From a virus, in the IMG/VR virus record IMGVR_UViG_3300034152_000240, positions 1 to 23,589 of that record: a stretch of 23,589 nt of DNA, one strand, 5' to 3'. The notes below the pieces were generated by a model, which ran no database searches, had not been told where the DNA came from, and worked only from the letters and a program-made list of their open reading frames with translations. The position numbers and the translations under genes are program-made. Below, one piece after another: positions 224-23,589 of this stretch (position 1 is its first letter; each line of letters opens with the position of its first letter).

Positions 224-678
224 TAGGAGAAAGAGCTACACAGCTTGTCCTCAGAACTTTTCATACGTCAGGATCAGCAATAATTAAAGGCGAGAAGAAA
301 TCTGAAGACATGAGACAACAAGATATTATTGGCGATCTCTCTACAGTTTCTTCAATTCTTCACAAGTTCAAAGGAAAAACTGAATCCGAAATTGTTGATG
401 AGTTATTTGATGTCTACGACAAAGATATACATCACGTACATTATGAATGTGTCGTAGCACAGCTAATGTGGTCTGGCTCAAGAAAATGGAGACTTCTACC
501 AGATCGGGATAAACAGAAACCTGAATTCTATAGCGTTCAATCAGTACCAAACCAAGAAAGTTGGATACTCTCAATGGCATTTTCAAATCCGAAGAGAAGT
601 ATTCTTCAAGGAATTCTTTACGAAGGAAGATATTCCGGTGTGCTAGATAAAATCTTAAAGGGGGAAGTAATCACGTGA
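170..678 (+). CDS. RNA polymerase beta' subunit, C-terminal part (5' end lost or inverted)
   Basis: This is the C-terminal end of a multisubunit RNAP beta' chain. The frame reads GIIAAQTLGERATQLVLRT then FHTSGSA at about 202-280. That is the trigger-loop region (E. coli [21 protein letters not shown]), with the catalytic Arg and His kept and the Met replaced by Leu. Downstream, HVHYECVVAQLMW and ESWILSMAFSNPKRSIL correspond to the conserved C-terminal segments around VIVRQML and SFQETTRVL. From the trigger loop to the stop there are only about 160 residues, far fewer than in E. coli, so the insertion typical of proteobacteria is absent. Upstream codons are open to 115, with stops at 106-108 and 112-114, but 115-169 is the inverted piece. 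The first ATG is at 310, inside the conserved region, so it is not the real start. The stop overlaps the beta start by 4 bp (GTGA), so the two subunits are translationally coupled. Confidence 0.93.
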
Positions 679-3600
679 GAATAGTAAACCCTATTTATAA
701 GATACAAAACGAAGAAAAGAATATTTTTACATTAAGAAAATACGACTACGAGAATATTCTTCCTGCCGTTGCAAAAATACTTGAACCTGTAGAGGAGCTG
801 GGATTCTCAGTCAGTGAACTTGATCTACGAGACTCCCGGTTCCCTACGGGGGACCTTACAAGAACAATTCGACAGTCTCTTGTTATTCGATTAAAGAAAG
901 GCCAATCAACAATTGACCTAAGTATGTTCATTCCAAAGTTGATTGATGGAAACTACGTCTTTATAAATGGTAGAAGAAAGATACCATTATTTCAGATGTT
1001 TGACGTACCAGTTATAACAAGAGGTAATTCAATTAAGCTCAGAACCAATGTTGCTACACTCATGGTGGCAATTGAAAAGGAACCACCACACGTAAAGGTG
1101 AGTTTCCTTGGAAGAAGAGTCCCGCTGTCACTATTGATGCTTGCATACTACGGCATGGATGAACTAGTCAACAGATTTAGTCTAAATAGTTTTGACTTGC
1201 AAAAACCAGAAACAATTCTAGAATTCTTAGCAAGCGATCTTAAACTATATCAGACTGAATCGCGTGGTTACACACAAGACGATTTTATTCTTGAACTAGG
1301 TAGAATGTATTCAAAGTATAACGCCCGATCAAAAGGTGAGGATGTTGTATATGCATTAGACCTAATTCCGCGTGTTGATGTAATCACGAGAAAGTTCTTA
1401 AAACACGATGTATTGCTTGATGAACTGATTGATGCACTTCAAATTGGTTATGTAGATGATACACTGTTAACAAATAAAAGAGTTCGATGTTTTGAATACA
1501 TGGTATTAGCAAAGGTCTCAAAAAATGTATTCGATCTTTGTTTTTCTAATAGAACAACAAGACAACCGAAGTTTAACATAAACTCTTCTCAAGTAATAAC
1601 AGAATCAAATGTATCAGACATTGTCCAATTTGATTTTTCAATTAATCCCATTGAGGAACTAACAAAACTGTCTCGTATAAGTCTTTTAGGTCCAGGAGGA
1701 TTTAGAAGAGAAAATATTCCAAAGCATCTAAGAGATATTTGCCCAACTATGTTTGGAAGAGTTTGCCCTGTTGACACACCTGATCGAGATAATTGTGGTG
1801 TACTTCAAAATCTAATTCCAAACGTTCACCTAGATGAAAATATGAAATTCACAAGTAAGTTCTGTGAAGATCAACCAATATCTATTCCTGTGTCAATGGT
1901 TCCGTTCTGTGAACATGATGATCAAACAAGATTACAAATGTCTTCATCACAGATGAGACAAGCTATCATGCTTCAGAAATTTGATAAACCAATGATACAA
2001 TCTGGTTGTGAAGGACTATACACAGATTATACCCAATTTGTAAAACGAGCTAAAAAGGACGGAGAAGTTATTCATATTGACGGCAAGTATATTATGGCTC
2101 AGTATACTGATGGTGAGATAGATATTTTTGATATCTCTTACCGTAAAGTTTATGTAGAGAACGTTGATTTCATGCAAGTCTATGTTGAAATGGGAGATAA
2201 ATTTAGAGCGGGTGACATTCTAGCAGAAAGCAATTTCTGCAAGGACGGTTCGATCAATATTGGTAAGAACTTATTAACTGCTGTAATGTCTTACTATGGC
2301 GATAACTACGAGGATGCAATTGTAATATCAAATAGACTCGTAAAAGAAAGAACTCTGATGTCAGTTCATTTTAGAGATCTATCTTTTACAATCCCTCCTC
2401 ATAAAGTCCTGATGTCATTGAATAAAGAAAAATATCAACCTCTTCCAAAAGTTCTTGAAGAGATAAAAAGAGGTAACCCATATGCTATTCTTAAGACTAT
2501 AAATGCAGAAGATTATTATTCTGTATTTCAAGAGGAGAATGTTCTTAGAGCTAAAAGTAAATACATAATCTCTGAGGTGAACATATACCCAAACGAGTGG
2601 AACACGGAGCTTCCCGAATATAAAGATTGGGTTGAAGCAACAATAGAGAATCAAAAGGAAAAAGAACACTACCTCTGTAAAATAATAAAAAACAAACTTC
2701 CAACAAAAGAAGCAAAGCGATTTATTAAAGAAAATTCTTTAGATATATTTTCAAATGTTGGAAACTATAAAATAAAGAAAGAAAAAATCAATGGTATTCA
2801 TGTTGAAATGTATGCCATTCATTTTCGACACGTTCAAGTCGGTGATAAATTAGCGAATCGTCATGGCAATAAAGGTGTTATTTCAAGAATTATACCTCAC
2901 GAGAAAATGCCGTTAACGGAAGACGGAAGACACGTTGATATATGTATAAACCCTCTAGGTATAATTTCAAGAATGAACATCGGGCAATTGTATGAATTGC
3001 ATCTCTCACTTTGTCTTGAGTACTTAAAGGCGTCTTTGATGGAAAAGCTTGTAACCAAAAAGCCCCAAAAAGAAATAAGAGATTACCTACTTGGTTTTAT
3101 TAAGATCGTTGATCGGACAAAATCAGGATGGTATCATAAGCAATTCAAAGAGCAATTGCCAGATAAAATAGGTAAAGAATTTATAACTGAGCTAAATCTA
3201 ATTCAACCACCGTTTGAATCAATTCATTTAGATGATTTAAAGAAAGCATTTGAATATGTAAGTGCTCCATATAAACAAAAGATCTACGATCCTGTTTCAA
3301 AGTGTCACCTTCTTAATCGCATTGCGGTTGGATATATATATTTCTTCAGAATGGTTCATATTGCAGAAGAAAAACTTGCGGCGAGAGGCATTGGAGCATA
3401 TGCAAGAAGAACACTGCAACCGCTAGGTGGCAGGAGAAATAAAGGTGGCCAGAGATGTGGAGAAATGGAAACAGCTTCACTTATAGGCCATGATGCGCCT
3501 GCAAATCTGTTAGAGTTTCTCACAACAAAATCTGACTGTATTGATAAGAAGAATCAATTTATTCGTGATTTCATTAACCCCAAATTGTTAGATGAGATTA

Positions 3601-3689
3601 ACGAACTTGACGGGACACCTGAATCAGTTAAGCTTCTAGATTCTTATCTTACAGTTCTGGGAGTAGACCACGGGAAGAAGCATGAGTAA
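675..3689 (+). CDS. RNA polymerase beta subunit, unsplit, phage-encoded
   Basis: The 1004-aa protein is a complete, single-chain beta subunit; bacterial beta is roughly 1100-1350 aa. Landmarks in order: FINGRRKIPLFQMF near residues 95-110; GPGGFRRE at about 339-346; RVCPVDTPD at about 362-370; YYGDNYEDAIVISNR at about 540-555 with the active-site Glu-Asp; GDKLANRHGNKGV at about 723-735 with both catalytic lysines; NPLGIISRMNIGQ at about 759-771; GGQRCGEME near 924-932; and LTTKSD near 948. All the main catalytic motifs are intact, so it should be active. The start is GTG at 675, overlapping the beta' stop and preceded by a GGGGGAAG ribosome site. Bacterial operons run beta then beta'; here beta' comes first. 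In phiKZ-like phages both subunits are split into pieces, so an intact beta next to T4-like morphogenesis genes is notable. The alpha and omega subunits are not in the window. Confidence 0.97.
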   Translation: MRIVNPIYKIQNEEKNIFTLRKYDYENILPAVAKILEPVEELGFSVSELDLRDSRFPTGDLTRTIRQSLVIRLKKGQSTIDLSMFIPKLIDGNYVFINGRRKIPLFQMFDVPVITRGNSIKLRTNVATLMVAIEKEPPHVKVSFLGRRVPLSLLMLAYYGMDELVNRFSLNSFDLQKPETILEFLASDLKLYQTESRGYTQDDFILELGRMYSKYNARSKGEDVVYALDLIPRVDVITRKFLKHDVLLDELIDALQIGYVDDTLLTNKRVRCFEYMVLAKVSKNVFDLCFSNRTTRQPKFNINSSQVITESNVSDIVQFDFSINPIEELTKLSRISLLGPGGFRRENIPKHLRDICPTMFGRVCPVDTPDRDNCGVLQNLIPNVHLDENMKFTSKFCEDQPISIPVSMVPFCEHDDQTRLQMSSSQMRQAIMLQKFDKPMIQSGCEGLYTDYTQFVKRAKKDGEVIHIDGKYIMAQYTDGEIDIFDISYRKVYVENVDFMQVYVEMGDKFRAGDILAESNFCKDGSINIGKNLLTAVMSYYGDNYEDAIVISNRLVKERTLMSVHFRDLSFTIPPHKVLMSLNKEKYQPLPKVLEEIKRGNPYAILKTINAEDYYSVFQEENVLRAKSKYIISEVNIYPNEWNTELPEYKDWVEATIENQKEKEHYLCKIIKNKLPTKEAKRFIKENSLDIFSNVGNYKIKKEKINGIHVEMYAIHFRHVQVGDKLANRHGNKGVISRIIPHEKMPLTEDGRHVDICINPLGIISRMNIGQLYELHLSLCLEYLKASLMEKLVTKKPQKEIRDYLLGFIKIVDRTKSGWYHKQFKEQLPDKIGKEFITELNLIQPPFESIHLDDLKKAFEYVSAPYKQKIYDPVSKCHLLNRIAVGYIYFFRMVHIAEEKLAARGIGAYARRTLQPLGGRRNKGGQRCGEMETASLIGHDAPANLLEFLTTKSDCIDKKNQFIRDFINPKLLDEINELDGTPESVKLLDSYLTVLGVDHGKKHE

Positions 3690-17247: not shown

Positions 17248-18356
17248 CAAATCTGATTTCGCAATACGAGCGTTATATAATATGCGAGAAATTTCTGAAT
17301 TAGAAATTTTGTTTGAGAAGTGAGTTTATCATATCGTGGTTTTTCCTCAGTTTTCTTCAAAACCCCATTAAGCAAAACTTCTACTTGTTGTTTAAAATAA
17401 ATCTTAGCTGTGGTTCTCTTAATAGACATCAAGTTATCAACTCTTTTATAAAAATCTTCTCCACATATCTCAGAAACCTTAGTGACTTCACGAATAAACA
17501 ATTGAAGAACAGTACGAATGTTATCTTGCAAACCGACATCAGTTAATCCCTGAATTATTGTCTGCGCTGTACCCACATTTATCTTTGATCTTTTACGTGC
17601 TTCGTCTCTCGCCTTATTATCAATAAATTTATAAACGGTAATCTTACGAGCAATTTCTGCAACAAGACGATTTGTCTTATCAGGTGTCTGAATTTCTGAA
17701 GGTTTCCCCTCTTCATCTGAAGGAAGCTCTTCTGCGCTTATAGATTTTCCCTGTGCAGAAGCCTTCATATATGTATTTACAAAGCTCTTTACGCTTTGAG
17801 ATATTCGACTTCTAGTATCTTGAATAAAAAGAGAAACTTTATCTAGATCCCAATTCTTTAACCCCTGTTTCCAACGATTTGCCATAGCTTTAGCTATGAA
17901 ATAAAGTGCGTTTGCAATCGTTTTCTCTCGGTGAAAAAGATGTGTTTTCGTAAGAACTTGGAATGTATAATTAAACACACCAACATCACAAAACTTCAGT
18001 TGCTTCTTTAGAAGATTTGCATAATGACGAATAACATACAAAACCATCATGGTAAGGTAACTTCTTACGTCATTTTTTCTTAGGAAATAATGAAGCAAGA
18101 ATACGTACATCATTGCAACCTTATCATTATGTAAAGAAAATTTTGCTTCTTTTCTACCACTCCAAGTTCTCTTAGTAAATGCTTTCAAATCTTCCTCAGT
18201 TAGATTCGTATACTTTAGAAATTCATAGTACACTCCCTTCACACTTGGGTAGTAACAAGGCTCAGCCAATTTGCCAAGTTCTTGCGCAACCGTACGAGAT
18301 ATAATCTGTTTTAATTTTGTCTCATTTATTTTTGCTTTTTCTAATAATTCTTTCAT
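17244..18356 (-). CDS. Unknown 370-aa helical protein at the end of the minus-strand block
   Basis: Not recognised. The protein is basic and looks mostly alpha-helical, with a charged, Pro/Glu-containing linker near residues 205-230 (SAEELPSDEEGKPSEIQ) that may separate two helical domains. Helical stretches such as VAMMYVFLLHYFLR and YLTMMVLYVIRHYANLL are hydrophobic, but they are interrupted by charges and are more likely buried helices than membrane segments. It overlaps the gp6-like gene by ATGA and meets the plus-strand gene tail-to-tail with a 4-bp overlap. As the last gene of the baseplate block, a structural or assembly role is plausible. Confidence 0.75.
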   Translation of the reverse strand: MKELLEKAKINETKLKQIISRTVAQELGKLAEPCYYPSVKGVYYEFLKYTNLTEEDLKAFTKRTWSGRKEAKFSLHNDKVAMMYVFLLHYFLRKNDVRSYLTMMVLYVIRHYANLLKKQLKFCDVGVFNYTFQVLTKTHLFHREKTIANALYFIAKAMANRWKQGLKNWDLDKVSLFIQDTRSRISQSVKSFVNTYMKASAQGKSISAEELPSDEEGKPSEIQTPDKTNRLVAEIARKITVYKFIDNKARDEARKRSKINVGTAQTIIQGLTDVGLQDNIRTVLQLFIREVTKVSEICGEDFYKRVDNLMSIKRTTAKIYFKQQVEVLLNGVLKKTEEKPRYDKLTSQTKFLIQKFLAYYITLVLRNQIC

Positions 18357-20824
18357 ATGATAGTCACCGAAATGTTGTCCTCCGTAAAATATACAAACTC
18401 TGGACCATATAATAAGAGTTGATCTTCTGTAAGTTCTTCAAGTTGGAAATTGAAAAAGATACCAGTCTCGGGTTTAATTAAACGACAATGATCAACACCG
18501 TCAACTTCCTGGACAACGTCAATTATCTCTGATCGGTATATTGTAGCATTTGCTCCAAACCTTGATTTGAACGTTTCATACACCGCAGAACGCACAGCTT
18601 GGGCCAATGCACTAAAAGTTCCAGCATAAGAAGATGATCTAAAAACTTCAATTTGTACATCTAACGGTATATTATATTCTGGAATTGGTATCCACCCACC
18701 AACTTCTGCAAATATATACTTTGCTGCTTGGTTCGTTACATATATAATATCGTCTCCATTTGGTTGAGAATATGTAAAAGTAACATTAGTAGAATCTGTG
18801 CAAGTTATGATTGCATTTTTATTTTCACCAGATGAAAGAATATATCTATCACCTACATTGCAGGAAAGAGGTTCTGATGTAAGTATATCAATTACATTAC
18901 TCTTAGTAGTTTCATTTAAACCCATATTGGTTAGCTTGCCAAAAGCATTTGTAAACTTCACATTAGCAAAGTCCGTTAGCATCTTTCTACTTGCAAGATC
19001 AATTGATGAAACAACCTTTTGTAGAACATCAGATTCAAAATCTGTTTTTGATACGCCATCATAATAATCTTGTTCAATAACTGGAATATCATAGATAATT
19101 ATATTAGAACCATCTGGTGCTGTAGCGGTATTAGAAATCATGAAGTTATCAAGACTGCTTCTCAGTGTTACATCAACTTGGTAGTCAGCAACAATATTTG
19201 CACTTGGATCAAAAATTCTAAAAATTAGATCTTGTGAATCAGAAGGAAAATTAGTATAAGGATTAAATGTATATGTAAAAACACTAGCTGTTGCATCGTT
19301 CGTCATATTTTTTACGGATCCGGTAATGGTATTTCGAAGTTCGCATGTAGCTAGTGATGCATTTGATTCTTCTGATTGATACTGCAATTCAAAAATAGCA
19401 GAATTACCAACCTTTTGAATACTAAGTTGCGTAGCAATAATATCAAATGTTGAAGTATAACTTGTCTGTAAAGTAGGCGTTAGTTCTAATTCAAGAAAGG
19501 TATAATCATATTCAGCCGCAGAATTAAGCAAATCAATTGTCAGATCAAAAAGTGTATAATAATCTACTCCTCGGTGTGTTATGGTTGTTCCTCTCGGGAT
19601 AAATGTAACCGACGGATCAATTGTATAGGTAACATTGCGAGTCGGCACTAAATTATCAACTGTTTCTGTTTCAGAACCAAAGAGTAGATTTGTGAAAATC
19701 TGAATTTCATTAATCTTAATATCAGATCGCTTAAGCACAGGTAGAGCATTAGCTGCAAATGGCGAATCTGGTATAATTGTGCTTATATTCTGATAATCAC
19801 TCTCTGAAACTAATCTATTTAGCGCTGTCAGAGATGCAATTGAATTTGCCCTAATTTCTTCAATAGATTCTTCGTCTTCTCCATTTGTAGCGGGAGAAGT
19901 ATTCGTGACGGTATAATCTACAACTTGAACTGTCCCAGCTAGAGTGGTTGTGTATATTCTATCACCAGTTCTAATTGTTCCTGCAATTACATTTCCACCA
20001 GCTCCCTGAGTGATACCAGTTGTTACAAGTACCGTTGACCCAGGTTCCGGTTGAACTCCGATTAGATTATTACCAAAGAACAAACGAATTCCGCTTGACG
20101 TTCTTCTTGCTACATAACCCTCATCAGTATTTGACATTAAATAAAGACTGTTAAATTCTGTCCATGTCGTAAATCCAGCCGACCCAGGTTCTTGTATCTG
20201 AACTGTTAAAGTAGAAATCTGACCGTCAAATGGAACATCAAGAGTTACAAATTGAAAATCTTGAACGTCATCATCAATCTGAAATTCCTGCTCTAAATTA
20301 CTTATCTGTCGAACAGGTAAAACAAAATAAAGGTTTCCGCCACTTATTGTAATCGGCAATGTATATCTTTTGTTTCCTTCTACCAACGTGGCAGTAGCAG
20401 ATGTATTATTTGTAACCTCAACTGTTACTGTATAATAGGTAGTAAACTCAATTCCATCTTCAGTCTTTAATGTAAAGTCTTCAGGAATAGTGAACGTTAC
20501 ATTTGGATCTGTAAAAGTCAAAGGAAATGCCATCAAAACATTAGCTGTTGAAAATTGTGCATCTTGAGGGTTATAACCTAGAAAAGCAGAAAGATTAAGA
20601 ACAGATTCTTCAAGTTGTGCTGTAGTCATGAAGAATTCACGATAAGTTGAAACTTGATAGAATAAAAGGTTTCCTGTCAGTGTAGAAACAATATCTATAA
20701 TGAATGACAGAAAAGAAGATTTCGTAAGATCCACGTTTTCAAGTTCTAAGTACTCTTTGATCAAATCGCTGATCTGTCTACGAATTGAATCTCTTGATAA
20801 ATATATCTGGTCTGATAATGCCAT
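18353..20824 (-). CDS. Baseplate wedge protein, gp6/gpJ-like
   Basis: The 823-aa protein belongs to the baseplate-J/T4 gp6 group, which forms the wedge ring that triggers sheath contraction. Diagnostic parts: GNLLFYQVSTYREFFMTTA and LEESVLNLSAFLGY (51-84), typical of the N-terminal arm; GIRLFFGNNLIGVQPEPGS then TQGAGGN (245-278), the 'FG...G..P..G' and 'G..GN' signature; and GEDEESIEEIRANSI then NRLVSESDYQNI (315-347), the classic 'G.D.ES.EE.R' plus 'AV...DY' region. The middle, about 400-600, is extended with beta-rich Ser/Thr-rich sequence and is probably an insertion. The C-terminus has the expected 'D.V..V..VDGV' element (IDVVQEVDGVDHCRL). AAAAGGAAAG precedes the ATG. Confidence 0.88.
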   Translation of the reverse strand: MALSDQIYLSRDSIRRQISDLIKEYLELENVDLTKSSFLSFIIDIVSTLTGNLLFYQVSTYREFFMTTAQLEESVLNLSAFLGYNPQDAQFSTANVLMAFPLTFTDPNVTFTIPEDFTLKTEDGIEFTTYYTVTVEVTNNTSATATLVEGNKRYTLPITISGGNLYFVLPVRQISNLEQEFQIDDDVQDFQFVTLDVPFDGQISTLTVQIQEPGSAGFTTWTEFNSLYLMSNTDEGYVARRTSSGIRLFFGNNLIGVQPEPGSTVLVTTGITQGAGGNVIAGTIRTGDRIYTTTLAGTVQVVDYTVTNTSPATNGEDEESIEEIRANSIASLTALNRLVSESDYQNISTIIPDSPFAANALPVLKRSDIKINEIQIFTNLLFGSETETVDNLVPTRNVTYTIDPSVTFIPRGTTITHRGVDYYTLFDLTIDLLNSAAEYDYTFLELELTPTLQTSYTSTFDIIATQLSIQKVGNSAIFELQYQSEESNASLATCELRNTITGSVKNMTNDATASVFTYTFNPYTNFPSDSQDLIFRIFDPSANIVADYQVDVTLRSSLDNFMISNTATAPDGSNIIIYDIPVIEQDYYDGVSKTDFESDVLQKVVSSIDLASRKMLTDFANVKFTNAFGKLTNMGLNETTKSNVIDILTSEPLSCNVGDRYILSSGENKNAIITCTDSTNVTFTYSQPNGDDIIYVTNQAAKYIFAEVGGWIPIPEYNIPLDVQIEVFRSSSYAGTFSALAQAVRSAVYETFKSRFGANATIYRSEIIDVVQEVDGVDHCRLIKPETGIFFNFQLEELTEDQLLLYGPEFVYFTEDNISVTII

Positions 20825-20836
20825 TATGCTTTCCTT

Positions 20837-21487
20837 TTATACAAAATAGAATCCAGAATTATCGTCAAAAATTGCAGATAATGAATCTTTTAATTCTGAA
20901 TGTTTGACAAGAATTCGGTTAATACATTGTGCATCTTCTAATAGATGGATCTTCTTATCATATTCTGTAAATGACAGAATCCGAGAAACAGACTGATCGA
21001 GTTCGTCTGTTGTTCGGCTTTGAAAATTTTTAACGTTCAACTTCCAGAATCTTCTATCAGTGTTTGGAAATATCTCAACCCCCTCAACTCTGAATACTGG
21101 ATATATATCATTTGTTGGTCGAAGAAACTCTTGTTCTAATTTTATCATATCTCCTGGATAAGGTGTAAAGCCGTATGTACTTGGTATCGTAAATGAACTC
21201 ACGTTATCTTTTATATAACCTATATCTTGACCATCAAATGCCGTTGAAATTTCATCTGAATAATAAACTGGTAATAGGAGAATCTTCTCCCATTTAATCC
21301 CAGAGAGATCGCCAATATCGTGATATGGGCCACCAAAAACCTTTTCATCTTCCCATATTGTTTCTTCCTTATCAATATGGTAATATGTCGTGAGAAAGGC
21401 GACAACATGATTTGAGTATACTTCATAGAGCATCTTTTGATACTCGTGAATATAGAAGTACAACCTTTCATATTTTTGTAAATACAT
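20837..21487 (-). CDS. Unknown 216-aa virion-type protein
   Basis: Not confidently recognised. The ATG overlaps the upstream stop by one base (TAATG). The N-terminus is helical (KYERLYFYIHEYQKMLYEVY). A loop-rich region follows (GGPYHDIGDLSGIKWEKILL), then PSTYGFTPYPGDMIKLEQEF, with a C-terminal helix. A compact domain with 'P..GD' and 'V..VE.....YWKL'-like strands is also seen in phage neck and connector proteins such as T4 gp14, but the resemblance is too weak to name it. Its place between gp6-like and gp25-like genes favours a baseplate or tail role. Confidence 0.7.
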   Translation of the reverse strand: MYLQKYERLYFYIHEYQKMLYEVYSNHVVAFLTTYYHIDKEETIWEDEKVFGGPYHDIGDLSGIKWEKILLLPVYYSDEISTAFDGQDIGYIKDNVSSFTIPSTYGFTPYPGDMIKLEQEFLRPTNDIYPVFRVEGVEIFPNTDRRFWKLNVKNFQSRTTDELDQSVSRILSFTEYDKKIHLLEDAQCINRILVKHSELKDSLSAIFDDNSGFYFV

Positions 21488-22695
21488 TATCTACCTGCCT
21501 TCATTCTGCGAAGTTTTGAAAGTCTCTTATCTAAAATTTCTTCGTATTTATGCTTGGACTCAACAGCCCTTTGTCTCCAGTCTTCTAACATATTTAAAAC
21601 TTTCTTTTTACATTTAAGAGGTTTTTTTGATTTATTACATTTTGTCACCTGACTTTGCAAGAATTTTACAGCATATTGTCTTCCTTCATATCTACATTTT
21701 CTGTAGCAGAAATCTCTATCTTTATCTCTAATACAACTTTTCATACAGGCAAAGTCATGTTTTTTAATTATATAATTAACCACATCATTAAAGAAAGGAA
21801 TAGGTAATAGCCACAAACCAAGATATAAAACAATGCGAACTTTCTTTTCCATTTCTGGATTTACCTTTGGTTGATCTACATCTTGCTCAAATATTTTTTG
21901 TGAGATTTTAGTAGCTGATTCTTCAGGGATTCTCTTTATAGCGGAAAATAATGCAAGATGTTCGGGGAACGATAAATTTTTTCTAATAACCGAACTTTCA
22001 GAAATTAAATGCATCAATAAAAGATGATCTAAAGATAGACTTTCATAAGGAACTGCTGAAGTTGGTTTTCTCAACTCCTTTGATGCTTTCTTCGATAACT
22101 CTTTTGCCTTGGCCTGTCTTGCAACATCTTCAATAGCAGCCTTTGCTTTTTCAAGTCGCGATTTCTGTTGTTGTAGTTTCTTCTCCCATTTGACTAAATG
22201 TTTTCTTAATTTCTTTTTACATTTATCTTCGCGTTTATCTTCAAATTGATTACATTTACCAAATTCAGATCTAAGCCGTCTAACTATTCCCTGTGTTGCC
22301 TTATACTGGCATTCATACTTACATACATTTCTTTCTTTTCCTCTTCCAAATCTGTTAAAGCATTGGCGATAGCAAGGATCATTTAACTTTCTCCATGAAT
22401 ATAAAACTAGAGGGCCAAGTAGTGGAGCAGCAGGACCAGCCGCACCAGCCGCAATTATTGAAAAAGAATACTTTAGAAATTTTCTAAAAGCTCCTTCAAA
22501 TTCACGAATTCCTTCTTGCATAATTTCAAAAACTTCATCTTCTGGTAAACTTCTAATTTCTTTACACAGCGCAATGTGCTCTTTAAATGTAGTTCTTTCT
22601 TTAATATACTCGCTATGAATTGCAAAGCGAATTAATTGTTTTCTTCCAATATCAGCAAAAAATTGTCTTTTAATTTTATCCATTCTTAACCTCAT
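21487..22695 (-). CDS. Duplicated twin-CX3C cysteine-rich membrane protein
   Basis: Family not recognised. The 402-aa protein consists of two related halves, roughly 20-185 and 226-395. Each half has a helical FxEHxALxxxIxxxPE element (FKEHIALCKEIRSLPEDE and FPEHLALFSAIKRIPEES), a hydrophobic segment (74-98 and 287-304), then six cysteines. In half 1 they are C108-x3-C112-x12-C125-x3-C129-x18-C148-x10-C159. In half 2 they are C317-x3-C321-x8-C330-x3-C334-x18-C353-x8-C362. A lysine-rich coiled-coil-like helix follows each set. The x3 and x18 spacings are identical. Such pairs could bind metal or form disulfides. The ATG at 22695 overlaps the gp25-like stop (ATGA); ATG at 22683 with GAGG upstream is an alternative. 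A virion role follows from context only. Confidence 0.8.
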   Translation of the reverse strand: MRLRMDKIKRQFFADIGRKQLIRFAIHSEYIKERTTFKEHIALCKEIRSLPEDEVFEIMQEGIREFEGAFRKFLKYSFSIIAAGAAGPAAPLLGPLVLYSWRKLNDPCYRQCFNRFGRGKERNVCKYECQYKATQGIVRRLRSEFGKCNQFEDKREDKCKKKLRKHLVKWEKKLQQQKSRLEKAKAAIEDVARQAKAKELSKKASKELRKPTSAVPYESLSLDHLLLMHLISESSVIRKNLSFPEHLALFSAIKRIPEESATKISQKIFEQDVDQPKVNPEMEKKVRIVLYLGLWLLPIPFFNDVVNYIIKKHDFACMKSCIRDKDRDFCYRKCRYEGRQYAVKFLQSQVTKCNKSKKPLKCKKKVLNMLEDWRQRAVESKHKYEEILDKRLSKLRRMKAGR

Positions 22696-23126
22696 GTGGC
22701 CTCAAGAAATGATCCGAACGTATCTTGATCAAAATCAATAGATAGTTCTCCTGTAACTCCTCTATATGAGACTTCTACGTTAACATTAAAACCTTTGAAA
22801 TTACTAAAGTATGTGACCTCAAGATTTGTTATAGACGCACGATCATCATATCTCAAAAGTGTATCTTCAACTTCATTTTCAATTAGAGAAATAGTCTCTT
22901 CATCGGCTGGTTCAAAGACAAGACGGTATAGCTCGCTACCATACTCTGGATCAAAGATATATGTTCTTCTTGGAGTTTGAAGAATATTGTTCCAAGAATT
23001 TAAGATTACAGCCAATTCTGTAATACGTTTAAAATCGCCACTTGCCACGATCTTGCTTTGATAATCAGCTATCCTACCACCTGCTCCGCGAACCGCCGTA
23101 TTAAATCGATCAAGTAGGTTAGCCAT
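22692..23126 (-). CDS. Baseplate wedge subunit, gp25-like
   Basis: A 144-aa protein of the GPW/gp25 family, a small wedge component that helps nucleate the tail sheath in contractile phages. The core at 46-104 is typical: NILQTPRRTYIFDPEYGSEL, then LVFEPADEETISLIENEVE, then RYDDRASITNLEV. This fits the family pattern 'il.T..ger...pefGs.l...lFep.d......i...i...l...epRi.v..v'. The usual 'EPR' near the end is RYDDRA here. GAGG precedes the ATG. It lies immediately downstream of a gp26-like reading frame, the neighbour expected from T4. Confidence 0.92.
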   Translation of the reverse strand: MANLLDRFNTAVRGAGGRIADYQSKIVASGDFKRITELAVILNSWNNILQTPRRTYIFDPEYGSELYRLVFEPADEETISLIENEVEDTLLRYDDRASITNLEVTYFSNFKGFNVNVEVSYRGVTGELSIDFDQDTFGSFLEAT

Positions 23127-23135
23127 TTATAGTCC

Positions 23136-23390
23136 TCACCATCGTTTTTGTTTAAGCTCAATTTTGTGCTGTTCTTCTTCAATTTGTTTTCTTTTCTCTT
23201 CCTCGAATTCAGATTTCCATTTTAAATATTTCTGAAGCTTATTAACTGGCATTGCCATAATGTCAGTCCAAGATTGCTTGCTAAGTTCCATACATGCAAA
23301 AACATCTTCGTTAAGAGATTTAACATATTTCTCGACATCACTGTGCCGAGTACAATGAACGAAAAAAGCTTTCGACCAATTCAATGTCAT
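23136..23390 (-). CDS. Downstream frame of a possible frameshifted gp26/gp51-like assembly protein
   Basis: This open frame ends at 23136. It encodes HSDVEKYVKSLNEDVFACME, then LSKQSWTDIMAMPVNKLQKY and a Glu/Lys-rich C-terminal helix. The sequence looks like a real helical protein. It overlaps the preceding frame by at least 53 bp. Its possible starts (GTG 23423, ATG 23402, ATG 23390, ATG at about 23294) all lack a ribosome site, unlike most genes in the window. It is in the +1 frame relative to the upstream gene, so it may be made as a fusion through a shift at the T6C site at 23361-23369. If translated independently, the ATG at 23390 is the shortest start that keeps the whole conserved-looking region. 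The 'I..MP...L..Y' tail resembles small phage tail or baseplate chaperones; the family is not certain. Confidence 0.55.
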   Translation of the reverse strand: MTLNWSKAFFVHCTRHSDVEKYVKSLNEDVFACMELSKQSWTDIMAMPVNKLQKYLKWKSEFEEEKRKQIEEEQHKIELKQKRW

Positions 23391-23589
23391 AAACGTCACC
23401 ATGACCACAAGACGAACACACACTCTTCATCTTAAGATCAATTCCATACTGACCAAATTCTTTTTCATAAGTAGAAAATATTGCTCTTTTATCTCTAGCT
23501 GGTAGAGTTAAAAAAGCATCAAGTATATCTTCTCTAGTTTTATATTTTAATGTTTCTTTACTATCCACAATATCTTGTTCAAAGCGATC
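23338..23589 (-). CDS. gp26-like baseplate assembly protein with zinc-ribbon-like C-terminus (partial)
   Basis: The frame is open to the right edge of the window, so the gene begins outside it; an in-window GTG at 23568 has no ribosome site and is unlikely to be the start. The visible 83 residues contain REDILDAFLTLPARDKRAIF, then EKEFGQYGIDL, then VCSSCGHGDVYDIELVESFF. The CxxCG followed by 'i.l...FF' is typical, from memory, of the end of T4 gp26-type baseplate proteins. The position next to gp25 fits this. Only one CxxC pair is visible. After SFF the frame runs seven more codons to a TGA; see the frameshift site. Confidence 0.6.
   Translation of the reverse strand, partial: DRFEQDIVDSKETLKYKTREDILDAFLTLPARDKRAIFSTYEKEFGQYGIDLKMKSVCSSCGHGDVYDIELVESFFRSLYSAQ
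23361..23369 (-). other. Candidate +1 ribosomal frameshift site (GC-TTTTTT-C)
   Basis: On the minus strand the codons are AGC TTT TTT CGT, encoding SFFR. The second TTT can slide one base forward onto TTC; both are read by the same phenylalanine tRNA, so pairing is kept. The new frame then reads GTT CAT TGT and runs on to the stop at 23136, giving ESFF-VHCTRHSDVEKYV. The normal frame ends at the TGA at 23340-23338. No obvious stimulatory structure was seen. A sequencing indel in the A6/T6 run (23362-23367) would give the same picture. Confidence 0.45.

What the first reader, a model, noticed from the sequence alone, without database searches (positions are those of the whole stretch)
21487..22695. 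Internally duplicated membrane protein with two sets of six cysteines (twin CX3C)
Both halves repeat a helical EH-ALxxxI element, a hydrophobic segment, and C-x3-C, C-x3-C, x18, C-C spacing, at an offset of about 205-209 residues. Twin CX3C is best known from small mitochondrial Tim chaperones, but a relation is not implied. In a phage baseplate operon this may be an undescribed disulfide-braced or metal-binding virion protein acting at the host envelope.
Basis: partly seen in the sequence, partly recalled or inferred. Interest (0 to 1): 0.65.

Follow-up and report, generated by a model that had tools for sequence, protein, structure and literature searches.

The report
Disulfide-stapled accessory protein of phage tails
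A large tailed virus of microbes carries, among its baseplate genes, a protein made of two old copies of one cysteine-pinned helical unit; the unit belongs to an undescribed family that related environmental phages keep in the same two gene slots, which suggests a rigid, probably disulfide-locked accessory part of the tail, although nobody has yet shown where the protein sits or what it does.

Summary
The ORF (minus strand, 21487-22695, 402 aa) holds two repeats (blastp E 7e-12 between halves; far above shuffles even with Cys masked) with Cys 108/112/125/129/148/159 and 317/321/330/334/353/362, plus a conserved odd Cys44. The window is a fragment of a T4-like virus. I found 136 copies of the domain in 114 ORFs of related environmental contigs. 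They occupy two fixed slots of one tail operon: tube-like > [0-3 copies] > gp26-like > gp25 > [0-2 copies, or this fused gene] > 216-aa gene > gp6. No Pfam, PHROG, NCBIfam, PDB or phage-record match exists. C2, C3, C5 and C6 are nearly invariant; C1 and C4 come and go together; one lineage lost C2 and C3 together. With AlphaFold helices this supports pairs C1-C4, C2-C3, C5-C6 (disulfide-stapled helix turns) over one metal site. In other phages the two repeats are separate neighbouring genes. The hydrophobic segment is borderline and missing in some members, so 'membrane protein' is unproven, as is presence in virions. Seven sister contigs with the operon lack the family, so it is accessory. 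Similarity to small Tim proteins looks convergent.

The parts
21487..22695 (-). Two-repeat Cys protein, 402 aa, 13 Cys (3.2%), net charge about +43
22090..22638 (-). Repeat 1 (about residues 20-202): N-terminal helical element, hydrophobic segment, Cys three-helix domain
   Evidence: HMM boundaries; helices
21490..22032 (-). Repeat 2 (about residues 222-402)
   Evidence: HMM boundaries; helices
22219..22374 (-). Cys core of repeat 1, C108 C112 C125 C129 C148 C159
21610..21747 (-). Cys core of repeat 2, C317 C321 C330 C334 C353 C362
22564..22566 (-). Codon of odd Cys44, conserved in 15 of 18 aligned repeat-1 sequences; candidate for an intermolecular bond
22402..22458 (-). Hydrophobic segment 1 (residues 80-98, IIAAGAAGPAAPLLGPLVL)
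   Evidence: Kyte-Doolittle 1.75
21778..21834 (-). Hydrophobic segment 2 (residues 288-306, IVLYLGLWLLPIPFFNDVV)
   Evidence: Kyte-Doolittle 1.76
22692..23126 (-). gp25-like baseplate wedge gene, upstream neighbour
   Evidence: PF04965 5e-10; phrog_261 4e-20
20837..21487 (-). 216-aa conserved gene in the place of gp53 (named by position only; no family hit)
18353..20824 (-). gp6-like baseplate wedge gene
   Evidence: phrog_219 8e-29
23338..23589 (-). C-terminal part of gp26-like hub gene, cut by the window end
   Evidence: phrog_150; profile

Best explanation
The protein is an accessory component of the contractile tail module of a large T4-like phage. It is two fused paralogous copies of a domain found so far only in phage-like contigs. 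In each copy (predicted by AlphaFold) a short helix A, a helix B and a long basic helix C follow one another; the A/B turn would be pinned by two stacked disulfides (C1-C4, C2-C3) and the B/C turn by one (C5-C6). I infer that it is made late with the baseplate, binds the acidic gp25/216-aa/gp6 wedge proteins through its strongly basic helices, and that its cysteines oxidise once the particle leaves the cell, giving a stiff clamp; the hydrophobic segment, where present, may touch the target membrane on contraction. Shown here: the family, its two operon slots, pairwise Cys inheritance, predicted helices. Inferred: disulfides, virion location, wedge binding, membrane contact.
For: 136 domains in 114 ORFs; C2 133/135, C3 134/136, C5 and C6 135/135. 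After thinning at 85% identity, C1 and C4 both present 46, both absent 52, mismatch 1 (L082:1675-2265, which has a Cys one residue off); C2 and C3 both present 98, both absent 2. C3-x22-C5 in 98 of 99 while the A/B loop varies from 5 to 13 residues. AF2: helices 107-116/120-150/153-209 and 301-321/327-355/359-401, pLDDT about 85-93 there, Cys flanking both turns; a 4-Cys paralog gives the same layout. Same slots in the tail operon wherever the family occurs. Cys is concentrated in this protein: gp25 0, tape measure 0, gp6 4 of 823. Charge +43 against -11, -13 and -60 for the neighbours. Disulfides in a contractile tail are established for phage Milano (PMC10811340).
Against: No proteomics or redox data. 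The pairwise Cys changes are few independent events (3-4 changes for C1/C4, one for C2/C3; the sign test has no power), and the profile itself favours Cys-bearing members. Seven contigs with the operon stretch lack the family, so it is not a required brace. No coordinates were available to measure Cys-Cys distances; pTM is only 0.57.
Confidence: 0.42

Rival explanations
1. Ejected membrane protein: carried in the tail like a tape-measure companion, released on contraction, its Gly/Ala/Pro-rich hydrophobic segments enter the host inner membrane and help open a path for DNA, the stapled helices acting as a rigid collar.
For: Hydrophobic segment before the Cys core in most members, Kyte-Doolittle up to 2.4; variable-length Gly/Ala-rich insert in repeat 1; slots next to tube-like and hub genes; best, though insignificant, viral fold hit is a tape measure (E 0.097). 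Whether myoviruses of this kind encode ejection proteins is called open in PMC10329688.
Against: Only 38 of 97 domains pass a usual transmembrane cut-off; L083 and L087 have no hydrophobic segment; polar residues FND are conserved inside segment 2; fold hit not significant.
Confidence: 0.2
2. Non-virion assembly factor: anchored at the inner face of the cytoplasmic membrane, it holds hub or wedge intermediates during baseplate assembly, with the Cys domain in the cytoplasm and reduced.
For: More basic flank after than before the hydrophobic segment in 27 of 39 TM-like members, which by the positive-inside rule puts the Cys domain in the cytoplasm; accessory, variable copy number.
Against: Does not explain near-invariant paired cysteines; members without hydrophobic segment; lineages without the gene still have the operon.
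Confidence: 0.15
3. Metal-binding domain: the Cys residues hold zinc or an Fe-S centre.
For: Cys-rich with CX3C pairs; near-invariance.
Against: C1/C4 are absent in over half of the family, C2/C3 are absent in L085:4692-5273 and L183:6523-7113, and the constant x22 step along a predicted helix puts C3 and C5 some 34 A apart (1.5 A per residue), so no constant set of four ligands comes together.
Confidence: 0.07
4. Host-directed accessory gene (for example superinfection exclusion at the membrane) that merely rides in the tail operon.
For: Dispensable, 0-5 copies; evolves a little faster than most neighbours (57% identity to L082 against 65-69% for gp25, the 216-aa gene and gp6).
Against: The same two slots between the same core tail genes in distant relatives; no convincing defence-family hit.
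Confidence: 0.12

Closest known systems
Small Tim / CHCH twin-CX3C helical hairpins
   Same: Twin CX3C on an antiparallel helix pair, pairing C1-C4 and C2-C3 inferred here; Tim10 is the profile's only PDB hit
   Different: E = 0.6, not significant; extra C5-C6 staple and third helix, N-terminal element, phage tail operon, 4-Cys relatives lacking C1/C4
alpha-Hairpinins (plant antimicrobial peptides)
   Same: CX3C-X4-20-CX3C motif and two disulfides in a helix-loop-helix (PMC11591084)
   Different: Those are short peptides; here a domain in a 402-aa phage protein with a third staple
Disulfide-crosslinked tail of phage Milano (and Pam3 baseplate-fibre bonds)
   Same: Disulfides in a contractile tail (PMC10811340; Pam3 as cited in PMC10329688)
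   Different: The bonds listed for Milano link sheath, tube and wedge subunits; here the core tail proteins seen are Cys-poor and the Cys sit in one accessory family
T4-like baseplate core (gp26, gp25, gp53, gp6)
   Same: Operon neighbours
   Different: T4 has gp26 and gp25 directly adjacent with no such gene between or beside them; no copies were found in Flavobacterium phage immuto, Microcystis phage Mel-JY01 or two huge-phage records

Membership tests
Small Tim (twin CX3C) family | Two CX3C motifs on a helical hairpin | tested here: met
   (helices predicted)
Small Tim (twin CX3C) family | Significant sequence relation to Tim8/9/10/13 | tested here: not met
   No Pfam hit; Tim10 at E 0.6
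Small Tim (twin CX3C) family | Hexameric chaperone of the mitochondrial intermembrane space | not testable with these tools
   phage gene; no biochemistry
alpha-Hairpinin | CX3C-X4-20-CX3C motif | tested here: met
   x12 and x8; motif from PMC11591084
alpha-Hairpinin | Short peptide | tested here: not met
   402 aa
Milano-type disulfide tail network | Cys-rich sheath, tube and wedge subunits joined by disulfides | tested here: inconclusive
   gp25 0, 216-aa gene 1, gp6 4, tape measure 0 Cys; sheath and tube are not in the window
T4-like contractile tail module (neighbours) | gp25 and gp6 homologues in one operon | tested here: met
   PF04965, phrog_261, phrog_219
Integral membrane protein | Conserved transmembrane segment | tested here: inconclusive
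   Borderline hydrophobicity; absent in L083/L087
Virion protein | Found in purified particles | not testable with these tools
   no proteomics available

The most novel reading that the evidence does not exclude
The family is a new class of separate, disulfide-laddered proteins that contractile-tailed phages eject and insert in the host inner membrane to form or brace the DNA entry channel, answering how such phages cross the last membrane.
Probability: 0.15. Interest if true: 0.78.

Novelty: new variant of a known kind. Interest (0 to 1): 0.52.

Why it matters
It defines a sizeable, previously nameless protein family at fixed positions of a phage tail operon with an unusual, testable redox architecture. 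If the disulfides are real, they show a second way, beside Milano's inter-subunit network, in which a contractile tail uses disulfides; if the hydrophobic segments act at the membrane, they offer candidates for the unknown inner-membrane step of DNA entry.

Tried and rejected
Single-protein scans of viral contigs and tblastn of annotated phages with the window protein found nothing, so relatives were reached through the neighbouring terminase and gp6 genes. Tim-like membership rejected. Fold searches in PDB and BFVD gave no match at E <= 0.001. Defence-system membership not supported. Homology of the N-terminal element between 6-Cys and 4-Cys paralogs was suspected from the alignment but not supported (hhalign about 1%). 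Homology of the two hydrophobic segments not supported. A tree-based test of Cys co-change lacked power. An alignment search with mixed repeats had no scannable stretch. Literature searches for a phage twin-CX3C or huge-phage cysteine virion protein found none in the held library. The host was not identified; Shine-Dalgarno-like GGAG/AGGAG sites before many starts speak mildly against Bacteroidota (own knowledge).

Full report
WHAT IS THERE. The ORF lies on the minus strand at 21487-22695 (402 aa) and its start overlaps the stop of the gp25-like gene. Its halves are true repeats: blastp between halves E 7e-12; local score 161 against a shuffled maximum of 61, and 102 against 63 with all Cys masked. 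The Cys spacing is as reported, with C6 offset 203. The N-terminal elements are homologous by profile (97.6%), while the hydrophobic segments are alike in place only. A 13th Cys, C44, is conserved in 15 of 18 aligned sequences and lies in repeat 1 only; being odd, it could bond another chain (the bond is inference).

SURROUNDINGS. The window is a 23.6-kb virus record with a T4-like terminase, a tape-measure-like protein, an RNA polymerase beta-like protein and a minus-strand baseplate operon: gp26-like end, gp25, this gene, a 216-aa gene in gp53's place (named by position only), gp6.

FAMILY. Nothing matched in Pfam, PHROGs, NCBIfam, PDB or 50,697 phage records. Going through the terminase and gp6 neighbours brought homologues; profiles A2 and A4 and further scans extended the set to 136 domains in 114 ORFs. 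Two-repeat proteins recur in many contigs. In L085, L183 and L095 the two repeats are separate adjacent genes that fall with repeat 1 and repeat 2 respectively in the tree, on moderate support. So the 'internal duplication' is an old pair of paralogous genes, fused here or split there. Simpler 4-Cys relatives mostly occupy a second slot.

SYNTENY. In 33 mapped loci the order is tube-like > slot 1 > gp26-like > gp25 > slot 2 > 216-aa gene > gp6, with ends cut in some. Slot 1 holds 0-3 Cys genes and slot 2 holds 0-2 genes or the fused gene; L239 (185-kb contig) has an extra one after the 216-aa gene. Seven loci (L232-L238) have the operon and no family member. The family is accessory.

CYSTEINES. 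C2, C3, C5 and C6 are nearly invariant. C1 and C4 are both present in 46 and both absent in 52 of the thinned set, with one mismatch that is a one-residue shift; two members lack C2 and C3 together. An earlier, looser alignment shows a further candidate, L124:3319-3915, that keeps C1 and C4 without C2 and C3. AlphaFold places C1 and C2 on helix A, C3 and C4 near the start of helix B, C5 at its end and C6 near the start of helix C (4-Cys paralog). C3-x22-C5 is constant in 98 of 99 while the A/B loop varies. This is what stapled helix turns would show and not what a single metal site would show. Caveats: few independent events; profiles favour Cys-bearing sequences; no coordinates were available to measure distances.

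MEMBRANE. Hydrophobicity is borderline; 38 of 97 domains pass 1.6 and L083/L087 do not come near. The Cys core is basic (mean net +12), and the flank after the segment is more basic than that before it in 27 of 39 TM-like members, which would place it in the cytoplasm if it were inserted during synthesis. Disulfides would then have to form in the virion after release; that contractile tails can carry them is shown for phage Milano (PMC10811340).

MECHANISM. Best reading: a stiff, disulfide-stapled accessory clamp of the tail. The protein carries +43 among neighbours of -11, -13 and -60, so wedge binding is plausible. Ejection into the membrane is the more exciting rival; an inner-face assembly factor and a riding host-directed gene are others.

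COMPARISON. It would work like a twin-CX3C hairpin (small Tims, alpha-hairpinins) but is not a member: Tim10 matches at E 0.6 only. It differs from Milano's network in that the core tail proteins seen are Cys-poor.

VERDICT. Observation confirmed; undescribed family; disulfide reading favoured; virion and membrane roles untested.

Noticed in passing
window 22564-22566: Conserved odd Cys44 in the N-terminal element of repeat 1 only, a candidate for intermolecular bonding.
   Followed up: partly
L200 5353-12434: The same tail operon with three Cys genes lies in a 35.8-kb contig binned in a Thermoplasmatales archaeon MAG; probably a mis-binned phage, but an archaeal host is not excluded.
   Followed up: partly
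window 675-3689: 1004-aa ORF matching phage RNA polymerase beta-subunit families (phrog_24349, phrog_3295).
   Followed up: no
L101 1814-3085, L174 3969-5216, L109 1501-2826: Slot-1 paralogs carry long Ala/Lys/Gly-rich repetitive linkers between the N-terminal element and the Cys domain.
   Followed up: no
L133 3558-3899: Apparently truncated slot-1 paralog that keeps the N-terminal element and has no Cys domain.
   Followed up: no
L234 6655-7254: Cys-free protein with a hydrophobic C-terminus between gp26-like and gp25 in a contig without the Cys family.
   Followed up: no
L174 8236-9057; L133 1955-2719: A homing-endonuclease-like gene after the 216-aa gene, and a 17-Cys ORF before the tube-like gene, suggest mobile insertions in this operon.
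   Followed up: no
L132 130-1125: Radical SAM/SPASM protein divergently transcribed beside the tail operon in the 223-kb contig.
   Followed up: no
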